From positions 310,001-374,000 of the forward strand of contig NZ_LFVU01000027.1 of assembly GCF_001047375.1 (NCBI RefSeq): a stretch of 64,000 nucleotides of DNA, in the 5' to 3' direction. Source of the stretch: Clostridium cylindrosporum DSM 605 (GTDB lineage: Bacteria; Bacillota; Clostridia; Clostridiales; Caloramatoraceae). Shown here one piece after another: positions 9,785 through 23,521 of the stretch (position 1 is its first letter; every line of letters starts with the position of its first letter). The notes under the pieces were generated by a model. The model made no database searches. It was not told the DNA's origin and was given only the letters and a program-made list of their open reading frames with translations. A program made the translations under genes and the position numbers.

Positions 9785-10906
9785 TTAAAACATTTCATTT
9801 AGCTTTGATATAGCTTCCTTTTGCATATTAGGTAAAACGTGAGAGTAAGTATCAAGTGTTATTGATATGTTTGCATGTCCTAGTCTTTCTGATACTATTT
9901 TAGGGTTAACCCCTTGCTTTAATAGTAAAGTTGCATGACTATGTCTTAGATCATGGAACCTTATCTTAGGATAATTAGATCTTCTAATAAATTTTCTAAA
10001 AAGCTCACCTATATAAACAGGCTTGAATGGAGAACCGTCTTCAAAAGCACATACAAAGTCTTGATTATTATAAAAATCTCTATTTAACATAATTAATTCA
10101 TTTTGTTTCTTTTTATGAGCTTTAAGTTCCTTTATAGTTAAATCCATCATAGCAATACTTCTATTTGATTTATTAGTTTTAGGCGAAGTAAGAGCATAGT
10201 TATTGCTATTGTCTATCTTTTGAAAGTTATGGGTTACAGAAATAAACCCATTTGTAAAATCGATATTTCTCCACCTTAAAGCTGCTATTTCACCTTGTCT
10301 CATTCCAGTAGTCACACCTATAAGAATAGGAATATAAAGATTACTATTACTTTCTTTTAATTCTTTAAGAACTTCATTTATAGTATCAGAGTCCCATATA
10401 TTCATTTCAATATGCTCAGGTCTTGGAGGCTTAACAGCACTTGCAGGATTATAATTTAACATCTGCCATCCAACAGCATGTTTCAAAGCCATAGATAACA
10501 TTCTATGAACCTTTAATATTGTTGAGTTAGATAAATTAGTCTTTTGTAAGTCACTATAAAATTTTTGAATATGCATTGGTTTTATATTAGCTATTTCAAG
10601 TCCACCAAGTTTAGATGTTATTTGTGTAGCAAACTGCTTATATCTAATATAAGAAGAGGCAGAAACATTTGATTTAGCATATGTTTCAAGCCAATACTTT
10701 AAGTATTCTCTTAAGCTTAGTTTTTGAGACTCAAAGTATTCACCATTTTCATACTTAGATATAAACTCTGCAAGTGCAATTTGAGCTTCTTTTTTGGTTT
10801 TAAATCCTGATTTGGATTTTTGCTTTCTCTTTCCTGTCTCGGGATCAACACCGATATCAACTCTAAAGCGCCAAGAATTATTTCTTTTTTCAACTGATCC
10901 TTTAAT
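9785..10906 (-). CDS. int: Tyrosine-type phage integrase, AUU start
   Basis: Site-specific recombinase that catalyses insertion and excision at selC. A long frame runs unbroken upstream of the first ATG (10576) to a TGA at 10910-10912. The family-typical N-terminus KGSVEKRNNSWRF begins right after ATT at 10904-10906, eight bases behind AGGAGG. With that start it has 373 residues: an AP2-like arm-binding domain, an SAM-like core-binding domain, and a catalytic domain with R203, H318, R321, H344 and Y354. An ATG overlapping the ribosome site reads only three codons (ATG ACT TAT TAA). Function is firm; the AUU start is inferred. Confidence 0.92.
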   Translation of the reverse strand: MKGSVEKRNNSWRFRVDIGVDPETGKRKQKSKSGFKTKKEAQIALAEFISKYENGEYFESQKLSLREYLKYWLETYAKSNVSASSYIRYKQFATQITSKLGGLEIANIKPMHIQKFYSDLQKTNLSNSTILKVHRMLSMALKHAVGWQMLNYNPASAVKPPRPEHIEMNIWDSDTINEVLKELKESNSNLYIPILIGVTTGMRQGEIAALRWRNIDFTNGFISVTHNFQKIDNSNNYALTSPKTNKSNRSIAMMDLTIKELKAHKKKQNELIMLNRDFYNNQDFVCAFEDGSPFKPVYIGELFRKFIRRSNYPKIRFHDLRHSHATLLLKQGVNPKIVSERLGHANISITLDTYSHVLPNMQKEAISKLNEMF

Positions 10907-16939: not shown

Positions 16940-17449
16940 ATGAATAATGAATTATTTAGAAAGGTAGAAGCTAGACTTTATGATATGTATAAGAAAATAA
17001 AGATGATAAACTGTCTAAAGAGAGAATGTGAAAGTCTTCAAGAGCATGCTGATATGATAATGAAGGATATAAAGAGATCTAATATAAGTATAGAAGCTGA
17101 AATGTATTTAGGAATAGATTATAGCTCTATTAATGTTCAAACATCACATAATGGTGATAGTTACATGGATAGGGAGCTAATAGCAGCTATCACAAGGCTT
17201 GAAAATGAATGGAGATATGTTAGAAGAAAGTTAATTAAGAAACATGAAAAGATAAGGGAGATAGAAAGATCCATACTAACTCTGAAAAATAATATAGAAA
17301 TGCTAAGTGAAGAGAATAAAAGATTTATAGAACTTAAGTATGGGGATAAAAGAAGTATTCCTGAAATAGCAGATATGTTGAATATGGGAAGAACAACAGC
17401 TTATAGAAAGCGAGAAGAGCTTATATCAGATATAGCTCAATGGTGTTAA
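16940..17449 (+). CDS. Sigma-region-4-like late transcription activator (ArpU type)
   Basis: 169 residues. The N-terminal two thirds are helical and charged. The C-terminus (NKRFIELKYGDKRSIPEIADM, then NMGRTTAYRKREELI, about 128-163) is a sigma-70 region-4-like helix-turn-helix. Proteins of this form at the end of the early operon, just upstream of terS, act as late activators in Firmicute phages. Phased GGTACA repeats start six bases after its stop and are the likely binding site. Confidence 0.75.
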   Translation: MNNELFRKVEARLYDMYKKIKMINCLKRECESLQEHADMIMKDIKRSNISIEAEMYLGIDYSSINVQTSHNGDSYMDRELIAAITRLENEWRYVRRKLIKKHEKIREIERSILTLKNNIEMLSEENKRFIELKYGDKRSIPEIADMLNMGRTTAYRKREELISDIAQWC

Positions 17450-17454
17450 TTTGA

Positions 17455-17522
17455 GGTACAAAAATGGTACAGTTTTGGTATAAATTTGGGAGATAGCAGT
17501 ATATTAAAAGTGTTATTATAAT
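17455..17522 (+). promoter_or_regulatory. Late promoter with four 11-bp-phased GGTACA-type repeats
   Basis: GGTACA at 17455, GGTACA at 17466, GGTATA at 17477 and GGGAGA at 17488 are spaced exactly 11 bases apart. A clear -10, TATAAT, lies at 17517-17522, but the -35 position (17494-17499) reads TAGCAG. A strong -10 without a -35, behind helically phased repeats, is what an activator-dependent promoter looks like. Confidence 0.65.
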
Positions 17523-17565
17523 ACTATGAAGATCCTTGTAAGGGATACAACAGGGGTTACGAGTT

Positions 17566-17600
17566 AAAGCATCTATGATTAGTTTCATAGGTGCTTTTAT
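17566..17600 (+). terminator. Leader terminator just after the late promoter
   Basis: A 13-bp stem (17566-17578 with 17585-17597, one G-U pair) with six-base loop. Following Ts are few. It lies about 40 bases past the expected late start, which hints at antitermination. Confidence 0.65.
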
Positions 17601-17723
17601 ACGCAGAAAAAATGTTATTATTTTCATAATTTTCGTGGAAAAGGAGGAAAATTGTCCTAAAATATAGAAATAACTCTTGTGATTATTTTACATAAAATTG
17701 TATTTGGTAATGGAGGGGATTTT

Positions 17724-18494
17724 ATGTTTGGGACTGTAATTATTGATGCATATAAAAAAGATGAAGCAAATGAAATAGCATATGCTTTAGAAGACTTGTG
17801 TTCTCCAAATGATTATTATGGGTGGGCATCAGCAGGAGTATATTGTTTTTGGGATTATTATACAAAGGAAGTACTGTATATTGGGTTGGCTGTAGATTTA
17901 TGCGAGAGATTTAAACAACATAATGGTATTATAAAAGTAGATGACAATTCTTGTAAGTTGAAACAAATTGAAAAGTATTTTAGTAATAAAGAAAAGTTAG
18001 GCTATTCAATATTTGTACAATCAGTGTTATCACAACCAATTGTACACAGAAATGAAAGAAGTTATAGAAAGATATTAGGTGAAAATTTTTCAAGAGAGGA
18101 CTATGTTGGACAGTTGGGACAACAACATATAAAAGAAGTGGAAGGTATTCTGATAGAGTCATATAGAAAAGTAAATGGTAGTTATCCTAAATGGAATATT
18201 ATAGGAGGATCTTTAGATGGGCAGAGTGTAGCTACTATAGGAAATTATAGTATTATCAAGGCTTTTAACGATTTTGGATTAAATCCGATTGTTTCTAGGT
18301 GTACACTAAGAGAGTTATCACAAAATCCTACATATGAGAGATATGAAAATGATTTACATGCAGTTAGGATGATGGTTTTAAATACTGGAATAAGTTTCGA
18401 TAAAGCGTTTAAGTTTTATAGTAAAGCTGATATTTTAAATACATATGGTGAAATGATTAATGTTAATTATTTTGAGAAGAAGTTAGTATTGTAA
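17724..18494 (+). CDS. GIY-YIG domain protein
   Basis: 256 residues from ATG 17724, chosen because GGAGGGG lies just upstream. The GIY-YIG nuclease core is seen in GVYCFWDYYTKEVLYIGLAV and a basic ERFKQH, with a possible catalytic Glu in EGILIE. The C-terminal half contains repeats of helices without known domain. It sits as an extra gene between the late promoter and terS, so a homing or defence nuclease is possible; neither is shown. Confidence 0.7.
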   Translation: MFGTVIIDAYKKDEANEIAYALEDLCSPNDYYGWASAGVYCFWDYYTKEVLYIGLAVDLCERFKQHNGIIKVDDNSCKLKQIEKYFSNKEKLGYSIFVQSVLSQPIVHRNERSYRKILGENFSREDYVGQLGQQHIKEVEGILIESYRKVNGSYPKWNIIGGSLDGQSVATIGNYSIIKAFNDFGLNPIVSRCTLRELSQNPTYERYENDLHAVRMMVLNTGISFDKAFKFYSKADILNTYGEMINVNYFEKKLVL

Positions 18495-18594
18495 ATAAGT
18501 AATATTAATATTTAAAATAAGATTGAATTTATGTAGAAGGTTAAAAAGTAATTTAGAATATATTTTGTTTAATATTTTAAAGGAGCTATGTAAA

Positions 18595-19413
18595 ATGAAA
18601 AATAAAATTAAAAAATTGCTCGATAAAATAAATTTTAAGAAAATTACTATTATATTATCATTATTATTTTTTATAAGTTTATTAGTACAGAATTTTATAA
18701 ATTATTATGTAGGTGTTTTCATGAGTTTAACATTAATATTAATGTTAACTATAGATATTATTTTATTTACAATAAAAAGTGTATATAAGGATATTACTAA
18801 AATAGCTGTAGTTTTATTTATGTTTACTTACTTTATTTTTTTAGTTATATCATTTGGCAAGTTTATGATATGGATTGTTCCTAAATATTTTCCTAATGAG
18901 AAAGAGGTCATCTATAATTTGTTTTCTACATCATTTTCAGCACTCATCACAGCTATCATAGGATTCATAGCTGTTTATTTTGGTGCTGTATATGGAGGAA
19001 ATAAAGCAACAGAAAATATGGAAAGACAATTTCAAGTTGAAAAAGAAAACCAAGAAAAGATAGAAGAAAAAAATAAAAAGGTTTTAACAAACACTATAGC
19101 TAAGCTTATAAAAGAAGAAGTTCAACATAATGCAATTTTAATATATAATACTCATTTTTTTCAGTACTTAGATAAAGGTTATGGTACACAATATGGATAT
19201 AACTTTAATGAGGAGTTAAAATTTTACGATTATAATAAAATAAAGTATGAATTAATTAAATACTATGAATTAAACATTGTAGAAGAAGTTATAGATTTAT
19301 ATTCTTTATTCTATATATTAAGTAGGAATAAGGATATTAATCAGCTTACTGAAAAAGAATACATAAAAATGACTTCACTAGATGAGAAGCTTAAAAATTT
19401 TTTAAAGGAATAA
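18595..19413 (+). CDS. Membrane protein with cytosolic coiled coil, accessory phage gene
   Basis: 272 residues from ATG 18595 (AAGGAG nine bases before). After a basic N-terminus come about four hydrophobic segments within residues 15-140, then a Glu/Lys-rich coiled coil (about 145-175) and a soluble tail. No family recognised. It follows the GIY-YIG gene and precedes a terminator, so the two form an inserted cassette, possibly a moron acting on the host or on other phages. Confidence 0.6.
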   Translation: MKNKIKKLLDKINFKKITIILSLLFFISLLVQNFINYYVGVFMSLTLILMLTIDIILFTIKSVYKDITKIAVVLFMFTYFIFLVISFGKFMIWIVPKYFPNEKEVIYNLFSTSFSALITAIIGFIAVYFGAVYGGNKATENMERQFQVEKENQEKIEEKNKKVLTNTIAKLIKEEVQHNAILIYNTHFFQYLDKGYGTQYGYNFNEELKFYDYNKIKYELIKYYELNIVEEVIDLYSLFYILSRNKDINQLTEKEYIKMTSLDEKLKNFLKE

Positions 19414-19430
19414 CTTAATAATTTATCTTG

Positions 19431-19455
19431 GAACTCTATGTAAGAGTTCTTTTTC
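19431..19455 (+). terminator. Terminator between the accessory cassette and terS
   Basis: GAACTC/GAGTTC stem (19431-19436, 19444-19449) and seven-base loop followed by TTTTTCTTTTT. Confidence 0.65.
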
Positions 19456-19477
19456 TTTTTATAGAGGAGGTGGCATT

Positions 19478-19918
19478 GTGAAATTAACACCAAAACAGAA
19501 GGCATTTGCTGACTATTATATTGAGTTAGGCAATGCCACTGAAGCTGCTGTTAAAGCAGGATATAGTAAAAAAACAGCTACAGTAATAGGAGCTGAAAAC
19601 TTAATAAAACCTAATATAAAAAGTTACATAGACCAAAGAATGAGAGAGCTAGATGAAAAGGCTATAGCAAGGCAAGAGGAAGTCCTTAAGTATCTAACTA
19701 AGGTTATGAGAGGAGAAGAAACTGAGGAAGTAGTTGTTATAGAGAACATTGGAGACTCTATGAGTGAAGCTAGAATAGTAAAAAAGCAAGTAGGAGCCAA
19801 AGATAGAAATAAAGCTGCTGAGCTTTTAGGAAAAAGATATAGACTATTCGTAGATAAAGTTGAAGCAGATGTTAATCAAACAGTTATATTTGAAGGTGAA
19901 GATGAGCTTGAAGATTAA
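19478..19918 (+). CDS. terS: Phage terminase small subunit
   Basis: 146 residues, GTG start behind AGAGGAGGTG. The N-terminus KLTPKQKAFADYYIELGNATEAAVKAGYSK is the classic terminase_2 DNA-binding motif; the centre is helical and the end acidic. It recognises phage DNA for packaging with the large subunit, whose gene overlaps by 17 bases. Confidence 0.95.
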   Translation: MKLTPKQKAFADYYIELGNATEAAVKAGYSKKTATVIGAENLIKPNIKSYIDQRMRELDEKAIARQEEVLKYLTKVMRGEETEEVVVIENIGDSMSEARIVKKQVGAKDRNKAAELLGKRYRLFVDKVEADVNQTVIFEGEDELED

Positions 19919-21137
19919 TATATCTGAAAAGATAGGGAAAGGTTATAGGACCTTTTGGAACTATAAAGGTAGATATAGGGTAGTTAAAGGTGGGAGAGGG
20001 AGTAAGAAGTCTACTACCACAGCTCAATGGATAATTTACAACATGATGAAATATCCATTGGCAAACACTTTAGTTATTAGAAGAGTATTTAATACTCACA
20101 AAGATAGCACATATACCCAGCTAAAATGGGCTTGTAATAACTTATGTGTAAGCCATTTATGGCATTTTAGTAAGTCTCCTTTAGAAGCTACATATATACC
20201 TACAGGACAAAAGATATTATTTAGAGGTCTTGATGATCCTATGAGCATAACCTCTATAACTGTTGAAGTTGGACATCTTTGTTGGTGTTGGTTTGAAGAA
20301 GCTTTCCAAGTTATGAATGAAGATGACTTTAACAAGATAGATATGTCAATAAGAGGAGAGCTTCCACAGGGATATTTTAAGCAATTAACACTTACATTTA
20401 ATCCTTGGAGTGAAAAACATTGGCTTAAAATGAGGTTCTTTGATTGTAAAAGTAATAATGTATTAGCACTTACTACTAATTATATGTGTAATGAGTTTCT
20501 TGGAGAAGATGATATAGCTATATTTAATGAAATGAAAGTAAAGAATCCAAGAAGATTTAAGATAGAGGGCCTTGGGGAATGGGGAATAGCTGAGGGGCTT
20601 GTATTTAATAACTTTGAGTCTATGGATTTTGATGTATCTGATATAAGTAAAAGACCAGATACAGTATCAGTTTTTGGACTAGACTTTGGCTATACCAATG
20701 ATCCTACAGCTTTTATAGCAGCATTAGTTGATAAGAAAAATAGTGAAATCTATATTTTTGATGAGTTTTACCAAAAGGCTATGACTAATAAGGATATAGC
20801 TGATATGATCAAGTATAAAGGTTATGGTAAAGAAAGAATTAAAGCTGACTGTGCAGAACCTAAATCAATAGATGAAATAAGGCACTTTGGTATAAGAAGG
20901 ATTAAGGCTGCAAGAAAAGGTAAGGATAGTATCTTATTTGGAATTCAAAGGATACAAAACTATAAAATATATGTACATCCTAGGTGTGAAAATACATTAA
21001 TAGAGCTAAGTAACTATGTTTGGAGTACTAAGGAAGGACAAGTTAGTAATAAGCCTATTGATGAATACAATCACTTAATGGATGCATTAAGATATGCAAC
21101 TGAAGATATTGATAAGAAAGGACTTAGAACATTCTAG
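19902..21137 (+). CDS. terL: Phage terminase large subunit (PBSX type)
   Basis: 411 residues from ATG 19902 (an upstream in-frame start at 19860 would lie in terS). The packaging ATPase has Walker A VVKGGRGSKKST near 27-39 and a Walker B near LCWCWFEEA. The nuclease part has FGLDFGYTNDPTAFI and later acidic residues, ending in EYNHLMDALRYATE. It translocates DNA into the capsid. The GSKKS form of Walker A, with Lys in place of Gly, is normal in this family. Confidence 0.95.
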   Translation: MSLKINISEKIGKGYRTFWNYKGRYRVVKGGRGSKKSTTTAQWIIYNMMKYPLANTLVIRRVFNTHKDSTYTQLKWACNNLCVSHLWHFSKSPLEATYIPTGQKILFRGLDDPMSITSITVEVGHLCWCWFEEAFQVMNEDDFNKIDMSIRGELPQGYFKQLTLTFNPWSEKHWLKMRFFDCKSNNVLALTTNYMCNEFLGEDDIAIFNEMKVKNPRRFKIEGLGEWGIAEGLVFNNFESMDFDVSDISKRPDTVSVFGLDFGYTNDPTAFIAALVDKKNSEIYIFDEFYQKAMTNKDIADMIKYKGYGKERIKADCAEPKSIDEIRHFGIRRIKAARKGKDSILFGIQRIQNYKIYVHPRCENTLIELSNYVWSTKEGQVSNKPIDEYNHLMDALRYATEDIDKKGLRTF

Positions 21138-21169
21138 GTCTTATTTTTATGCCTAAAAGAGGTGATACA

Positions 21170-22633: not shown

Positions 22634-23393
22634 AAATAGTAAGTACTGGGAAAGTAGAATTGCTAATAATACTTGGAGTATATACAACAGCTTAGAAGAA
22701 AAAAATAAAGCTATTCTTGAAATGTATCAGGAAGCGTACTATCACTTATCAGAGGAGTTATATAGGGTTGCTGAGAAAATAAATGGAGGAAAACCTAATC
22801 TTACAGATATGCATAAACATAATAGATTATCACTACTTAAGAAAAAGTTTGAGGACATTATAGAAGAATTAGTAGATAATGTAGAGAGCTTAACAAAGGA
22901 GGCTATGTTCAAAGCATTTTCTGATAACTACAAGAATATAATGAAATCACTTGATCTTGGAGATTTTGCAGAAGTAAATCAAGCTTTAATGGAAGAGTTA
23001 CTAGAAAAGCCTTGGCAAGGTAGTTTCTTTAGTAAAAGGCTTTGGAAAAACACATCTATACTGGCCAGTAACTTAAATGAGTTTTTAACTCAAGGACTTA
23101 TACAAGGTAAAACAATAGCTGAAATAAGTATAGGGTTAGGTAATTTAATGCAGCAAGGATTTAATGTTACCCATAGGCTAGTTAGAACAGAGGCAATGCA
23201 TTATTTAAATCAAAGTAGCCATAGAGCATATGAAGACGCAGGAATAGAAAAGGTGCAGGTATGGGCTGCTAAGGATGAAAGAACTTGCAAAGTGTGTGGT
23301 AAGAAACATGGAAAAATATATTTTGTAGATAAGTCTCCTATTCTACCTTTACATTCAAATTGCAGGTGTACATATATACCAATTGTAGACTAA
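22626..23393 (+). CDS. Phage minor head protein (SPP1 gp7 / Mu F-like)
   Basis: 255 residues from ATG 22626, overlapping the portal stop. The helical body leads to a C-terminal Mu F domain with LVRTEAMHYLNQ and a cysteine-histidine set: CKVCGKKHGK and LHSNCRCTY, which probably binds zinc. These proteins attach to the portal and are often injected. Confidence 0.88.
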   Translation: MSKNSKYWESRIANNTWSIYNSLEEKNKAILEMYQEAYYHLSEELYRVAEKINGGKPNLTDMHKHNRLSLLKKKFEDIIEELVDNVESLTKEAMFKAFSDNYKNIMKSLDLGDFAEVNQALMEELLEKPWQGSFFSKRLWKNTSILASNLNEFLTQGLIQGKTIAEISIGLGNLMQQGFNVTHRLVRTEAMHYLNQSSHRAYEDAGIEKVQVWAAKDERTCKVCGKKHGKIYFVDKSPILPLHSNCRCTYIPIVD

Positions 23394-23420
23394 GCACTTA
23401 CTTAGAAGTAGGTGCTTTTA
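23392..23420 (+). terminator. Terminator-like hairpin after the minor head gene
   Basis: AAGCACTTACTT (23392-23403) pairs with AAGTAGGTGCTT (23406-23417), followed by only four Ts. It lies inside the structural operon. Confidence 0.5.
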
Positions 23421-23521
23421 GTTTTGTCTTTTTTCTATAGGAGCAGACGTAAAAGAACAACTATAGTAACTATATTTGAGAAGAGAACTCGTAAAAATCG
23501 TAAATATAGGAGGATAGAAGC

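What the first reader, a model, noticed from the sequence alone, without database searches (positions are those of the whole stretch)
17455..17600. Late promoter: 11-bp-phased GGTACA repeats, no -35, and a leader terminator
Four repeats spaced by exactly 11 bases start six bases after the stop of a sigma-region-4-like gene. A perfect TATAAT follows without a -35, and a 13-bp terminator lies within the first 80 bases of the transcript. This is the layout expected for an activator-dependent late promoter followed by an antitermination checkpoint, reminiscent in logic of lambda pR' and tR'.
Basis: partly seen in the sequence, partly recalled or inferred. Interest (0 to 1): 0.65.

Follow-up and report, generated by a model that had tools for sequence, protein, structure and literature searches.

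The report
RinA/Alt-type phage late promoter, gated leader
This is the switch that turns on the virion genes of a clostridial prophage: a protein encoded just upstream almost certainly binds a row of short DNA repeats in place of a normal promoter element, and the new transcript must then get past a built-in stop signal that also follows the late promoters of several well-studied phages.

Summary
GGTACA/GGTACA/GGTATA plus a weak GGGAGA lie 11 bp apart after the stop of a phage regulator. There is no -35, and a 13-pair hairpin lies about 40 nt into the transcript. Relatives put the -10 at TGTTATTAT (17511-17519), not TATAAT 17517-17522.

Across 70 relatives, 11-bp arrays cluster at the regulator stop (31 loci; 1.3 hits expected). 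The last copy starts 26-28 bp before the -10 in most, and exactly 27 bp in the window, TP901-1 (Alt) and phi11 (RinA). The regulator is in the same PHROG as RinA and has a sigma-region-4-like domain. Repeat sequence tracks its recognition helix (rho 0.40, P 0.0005). The promoter is a new member of a known kind.

The terminator is less expected. 27 of 40 leaders carry one (20% of control windows), as do phi11, phi13 and TP901-1. In several there is little or no room for a second promoter, so late polymerase must read through. The window also has hairpins 28 nt before terS and at the terL/portal junction. Factor-driven read-through is not shown: lambda pR'/tR' is apt as logic, unproven as mechanism. 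The window's U-tract is short, so its own terminator may be leaky.

The parts
16940..17449 (+). Late regulator gene, 169 aa: coiled coil plus sigma-region-4-like HTH
   Evidence: phrog_36 E 3e-16, same PHROG as phi11 RinA; AF2 pLDDT 86, C-terminal domain matches sigma region 4 at 1.1 A over 56 columns
17454..17497 (+). Four 11-bp units (AGGTACAAAAA, TGGTACAGTTT, TGGTATAAATT, TGGGAGATAGC): presumed operator, last unit at the -35 position
   Evidence: family-wide period 11; co-variation with recognition helix
17511..17519 (+). Extended -10 TGTTATTAT (hexamer 17514-17519), 27 bp after the last unit; start near 17526 inferred
   Evidence: alignment of relatives, spacing
17566..17601 (+). Leader hairpin (13 pairs, loop 6) with short U-tract: intrinsic-terminator-like
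   Evidence: not listed by the strict scan
17724..18494 (+). First gene after the leader; weak GIY-YIG match
   Evidence: Pfam E 0.0076, below cut-off
19430..19460 (+). Second terminator-like hairpin, 28 nt before terS
   Evidence: strict scan, -9.0 kcal/mol, U-rich tail
19478..19918 (+). terS, start of the packaging genes
   Evidence: Terminase_2 E 3e-39
21119..21149 (+). Third terminator-like hairpin at the terL/portal junction

Best explanation
This is the late promoter of a temperate clostridial phage integrated at tRNA-Sec. The sigma-region-4-like regulator made by the last early gene binds side by side, one unit per helical turn, on the 11-bp repeats directly after its own gene. The unit nearest the promoter sits at about -39 to -29, where sigma region 4 would normally read a -35, and recruits host RNA polymerase to the extended -10 TGTTATTAT. 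Early transcription cannot simply run on into the virion genes, because anything crossing the junction meets the hairpin at 17566-17597 and later those before terS and after terL. Once the regulator drives frequent initiation, enough polymerases pass these hairpins to express the late genes. Shown: the sequence, the family-wide geometry, co-variation of repeats with the recognition helix, the recurring position of the terminator, and lack of room for a second promoter at several of these hairpins. Inferred: binding, recruitment, the start site, the hairpin acting as a second gate, and read-through being mostly passive.
For: Period-11 arrays at the regulator stop in relatives; 27-bp spacing identical in the window, TP901-1 and phi11; repeat sequence tracks the recognition helix, rho 0.40, P 0.0005, partial 0.34 against 0.03 for the N-terminal part; sigma-region-4 fold; RinA PHROG; packaging genes downstream in the window and, as family totals, in relatives; leader terminators in 27 of 40 loci against 109 of 558 control windows and behind phi11, phi13 and TP901-1 late promoters; phi13 late genes need P23, its repeats and Ltr (PMC13123087).
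Against: No direct data on the window. Profile comparison of the regulator with Alt itself is not significant. 30 of 70 relatives lack a clear array, among them L131, whose regulator is one of the two closest. The window's U-tract is short and the strict scan misses the hairpin. Terminator-like hairpins are about as dense in the flanking host DNA.
Confidence: 0.72

Rival explanations
1. Q-like processive antitermination: the regulator, another phage protein or the leader RNA converts polymerase starting at this promoter into a termination-resistant form that passes the leader hairpin and those further down the late operon.
For: Terminators recur behind late promoters of different regulator families. 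In the window further hairpins follow before terS and at terL/portal, the latter 7 nt before the next start, leaving little or no room for promoters. 17 plus-strand against 1 minus-strand hairpin over 17449-49400, 10 of 17 intergenic, P 4e-5.
Against: No antitermination factor, nut/put-like element or boxA was found in the window leader. Partial read-through of weak terminators is enough to explain the layout. Not every relative has a leader terminator (13 of 40 lack one).
Confidence: 0.2
2. The terminated leader is the product: a short phage RNA of about 75 nt that acts in trans, with late mRNA as read-through.
For: Strong leader fold, z -6.1. 29 of 40 relatives carry a C-rich, anti-Shine-Dalgarno-like motif in the first 90 nt, against 2.9% of control windows, an anatomy seen in Gram-positive small RNAs (own knowledge).
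Against: The window lacks the C-rich motif. Leader-RBS pairing is not specific to own pairs, P 0.36. No Rfam family matches.
Confidence: 0.1
3. The hairpin is only the end of the early operon and the late genes are started by a further promoter between it and the first gene.
For: The regulator is the last early gene and this is the first terminator-like element after it. A weak promoter-like match lies at 17636-17663. Such hairpins often read as terminators on the antisense strand too (18 of 40).
Against: Promoter-like matches are at chance density. In L130, L141 and phi13 the next gene follows almost at once. phi13 late genes depend on P23 (PMC13123087).
Confidence: 0.12

Closest known systems
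RinA-controlled late promoter of Staphylococcus phage phi11 (regulator in phrog_36)
   Same: Same PHROG; operator directly after the regulator gene; two 11-bp units (TGGCAGTAAAG, TGGCAGTTTTT); 27 bp to a TATTAT -10; terminator in the leader before terS
   Different: Two clear units instead of three to four, other unit sequence; terS is the next gene, whereas the window has two other genes in between
Alt-controlled late promoter of Lactococcus phage TP901-1
   Same: Four imperfect 11-bp direct repeats, reported at -76 to -32 and bound by Alt (as cited in PMC13123087); 27 bp to an extended -10; terminator just before terS
   Different: Alt is in another PHROG with only weak cross-matches; its leader is about 500 nt and holds two tRNA genes
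Ltr/P23 late promoter of Staphylococcus phage phi13
   Same: Activator gene directly upstream, direct repeats required for activity, -10 required, leader terminator close behind (PMC13123087)
   Different: 18-bp repeats reaching into the coding sequence; unrelated regulator (phrog_1058)
Lambda pR'/tR' with Q
   Same: Late promoter followed at once by a terminator that late transcription must pass
   Different: Lambda pR' needs no activator to initiate and Q engages a paused polymerase (own knowledge; Q engagement in the abstract of PMC6606751). Here there is no -35, an activator appears needed, and no Q-like factor was found

Membership tests
RinA/Alt-type late promoter of Gram-positive phages | Regulator of the family encoded directly upstream, last early gene | tested here: met
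   phrog_36 E 3e-16, as phi11 RinA E 2e-38; packaging genes follow
RinA/Alt-type late promoter of Gram-positive phages | Tandem 11-bp repeats in place of a -35, 27 bp to the -10 | tested here: met
   reference promoters phi11 and TP901-1 measured the same way
RinA/Alt-type late promoter of Gram-positive phages | Regulator binds the repeats | tested here: inconclusive
   Only indirect: repeat sequence co-varies with the recognition helix
RinA/Alt-type late promoter of Gram-positive phages | Regulator is required for late transcription | not testable with these tools
   Needs a deletion or reporter
Alt protein family (phrog_2198) | Sequence homology of the regulator to Alt | tested here: inconclusive
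   phrog_2198 E 0.0026; hhalign of the family with Alt not significant
Intrinsic terminator (leader hairpin) | GC-containing stem followed by a U-tract | tested here: inconclusive
   Stem strong, U-tract short; passes the graded score, fails the strict scan
Lambda Q / pR'-tR' antitermination | Terminator ahead of the late genes in the late transcript | tested here: met
   with the U-tract caveat
Lambda Q / pR'-tR' antitermination | Factor-dependent read-through from a paused polymerase | not testable with these tools
   Needs in vitro transcription or reporters
Lambda Q / pR'-tR' antitermination | Q-family protein in the phage | not tested
   No Q-like match appeared among the window proteins scanned, but the whole prophage was not searched for one

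The most novel reading that the evidence does not exclude
Late operons of many Gram-positive temperate phages begin with a conserved terminator, and the RinA/Alt-type activators or a partner also make polymerase termination-resistant: an undescribed class of late antitermination driven by sigma-region-4-like proteins, parallel to lambda Q.
Probability: 0.17. Interest if true: 0.82.

Novelty: new member of a known kind. Interest (0 to 1): 0.48.

Why it matters
It extends the TP901-1/phi11 promoter rule to many clostridial prophages and makes it quantitative: 11-bp units, 27 bp to the -10, unit sequence tracking the recognition helix. It also shows that experimentally studied late promoters (phi11, phi13, TP901-1) are followed by terminators. 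I found no report of this in the papers I could search; the two key older papers were not held. It turns the question of how Gram-positive phages keep virion genes silent into a simple read-through experiment.

Tried and rejected
Leader 5' end pairing with the first gene's RBS as a conserved switch: good in the window alone, but own pairs are no better than swapped pairs over 26 loci (P 0.36). boxA in the window leader: no match there, and matches in the window are at chance number; boxA-like elements occur only in six relatives without repeats. Rfam: no family in the window leader. Close relatives in isolated phages and IMG/VR: none found. Period-11 self-similarity as sole proof: not unique in the window. 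Homology of the regulator to Alt by profile comparison: not significant. VIA-align hits to long-helix proteins: a common arrangement, not evidence. Quiles-Puchalt 2013 and Brondsted 2001 are not in the library and are used only as cited in PMC13123087.

Full report
WHERE IT IS. The window holds a clostridial prophage bounded by a direct repeat of at least 59 bp that contains the 3' part of the tRNA-Sec gene (copies from 9589 and from 44217), with the integrase at 9785-10576. The early genes run to 17449; terS (19478) and terL (19860) follow. The finding lies at the early/late junction.

THE OBSERVATION. The repeats are real: GGTACA 17455, GGTACA 17466, GGTATA 17477 and a weak GGGAGA 17488. GGTACA-N5-GGTACA is unique in 64 kb and absent from 100 shuffles. 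Period-11 self-similarity by itself is not exceptional in this AT-rich sequence, but the array with an extended -10 at 26-28 bp occurs only here. The hairpin has 13 pairs including one G-U. Its U-tract (UUUUAUAC) is short, and a strict scan does not list it.

RELATIVES. The regulator has no close homologue among isolated phages or IMG/VR. Searches of 99 and 225 genomes (nearest relatives, then the order) gave 73 loci including the window, 70 after removing duplicates. In the 160 bp around the regulator stop, period 11 stands out: mean z 2.05 and 24 loci above z 3, while other periods stay at or below 0.4, apart from the harmonic 22. A scan for three units plus a -10 at 26-28 bp finds 32 hits in 31 of 70 loci against 1.26 expected, and only 2-5 for periods 9, 10, 12 and 13. 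The unit sequence differs between phages (TGGTAC, TGGGAC, TGATAA, TGCAAC, TGCATT, TGGAAT) on a shared frame T-G-N-N-A-N-A-A-A. Of 29 well-scored loci, 19 have the last unit 26-28 bp before the -10 hexamer, and in 25 the phase is 4-6 modulo 11. In the window, TP901-1 and phi11 the distance is exactly 27. This moves the window's -10 to TGTTATTAT 17511-17519. Two limits: the -10 in relatives was chosen as the best match downstream of the array (four by eye), and AT-rich DNA offers several, so the distance peak at 27 is broad.

THE REGULATOR. It belongs to phrog_36 (E 3e-16), the PHROG of phi11 RinA. The predicted structure (pLDDT 86) is two long helices and a C-terminal domain matching sigma region 4 (1.1 A over 56 columns, although the Foldseek E-values are weak for the whole model). 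Repeat-sequence distance correlates with recognition-helix distance over 30 loci (rho 0.40, permutation P 0.0005). The partial correlation is 0.34 after removing the N-terminal part; the reverse is 0.03. The window and L108 share RTTAYRKREE and TGGTACAAA; four TGATAA phages share AQATAYRK; two TGCAAC phages share DKSTVSR. Close pairs in the set are not independent. The inference is that the regulator itself reads the repeats, with the proximal unit at about -39 to -29 in place of a -35.

THE LEADER TERMINATOR. Of 40 leaders behind such promoters, 27 have a terminator within 300 nt, against 109 of 558 control windows on the same strand. With a 260-nt window and a different threshold the numbers are 25 against 3, 3 and 1 in shuffles. 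It also lies behind studied late promoters: phi13 P23, stem 30 nt after the -10; phi11, 75 nt after it; TP901-1, just before terS. All 8 distinct Ltr-type and 26 of 32 distinct Alt-type leaders have a hit, though some Alt-type hits are tRNA hairpins. In phi13, L130 and L141 the next gene starts directly after it. Because phi13 late expression requires P23 and Ltr (PMC13123087), transcripts from P23 must pass it; that paper's reporter ended 50 bp after the start, so by my reading the full terminator was not tested there. In the window a second hairpin ends 28 nt before terS and a third sits 7 nt before the portal gene. Over 17449-49400, which includes host genes beyond about 44.3 kb, such hairpins number 17 on the plus strand and 1 on the minus, 10 of 17 intergenic (P 4e-5), against none on the plus strand of the early region. 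Density in the flanks is similar, so density alone proves nothing.

MECHANISM. Shown: anatomy, conservation, co-variation. Inferred: binding, recruitment, gating. The simplest account is an activator-dependent promoter plus a leaky terminator that keeps early read-through and basal firing out of the virion genes. Factor-assisted antitermination, as with lambda Q, is possible, but no element for it was found. A trans-acting short RNA is less likely for the window, which lacks the C-rich motif seen in 29 of 40 leaders.

COMPARISON. By family, geometry and position this is a RinA/Alt-type late promoter: a new member of a known kind. With lambda pR'/tR' it shares the layout of a terminator ahead of the late genes; the promoter logic differs, and Q-like function is untested.

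Noticed in passing
First 90 nt of late leaders in 29 of 40 loci, e.g. L089, L092, L095, L108, L138: A C-rich, anti-Shine-Dalgarno-like motif (CCCC, CCTCC, CTCCC), mostly 17-60 nt into the transcript, against 2.9% of control windows and about 10 of 40 in shuffles. Absent from the window. Function unknown.
   Followed up: partly
L090, L096, L102, L120, L124, L125, L127, L128, L150 and TP901-1 (L173 1135-1376): tRNA genes or tRNA-like elements sit in the late leader between the promoter and the first late gene, often behind a small hairpin.
   Followed up: no
L098, L109, L117, L119, L135, L145, 14-49 nt after the regulator stop: An rrn boxA-like element (TGTTCTTTGAAAACTGAATAATG and variants) in relatives that lack the repeat array: a possible antitermination site.
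   Followed up: partly
window 9589 onwards and 44217 onwards: A direct repeat of at least 59 bp containing the 3' part of tRNA-Sec marks the prophage ends: integration at the selenocysteine tRNA gene.
   Followed up: yes
window 17724-19413: Two genes (weak GIY-YIG match; a membrane protein without a family) lie between two terminator-like hairpins ahead of terS and look like a cargo insert.
   Followed up: no
window 23388-23423: A hairpin of the same GCACTT..AGGTGC type as many late leaders directly follows a head gene.
   Followed up: no
L117 1835-1898: Match to the Rfam family DUF3800-VIII RNA (RF03075), about 700 nt after the regulator.
   Followed up: no
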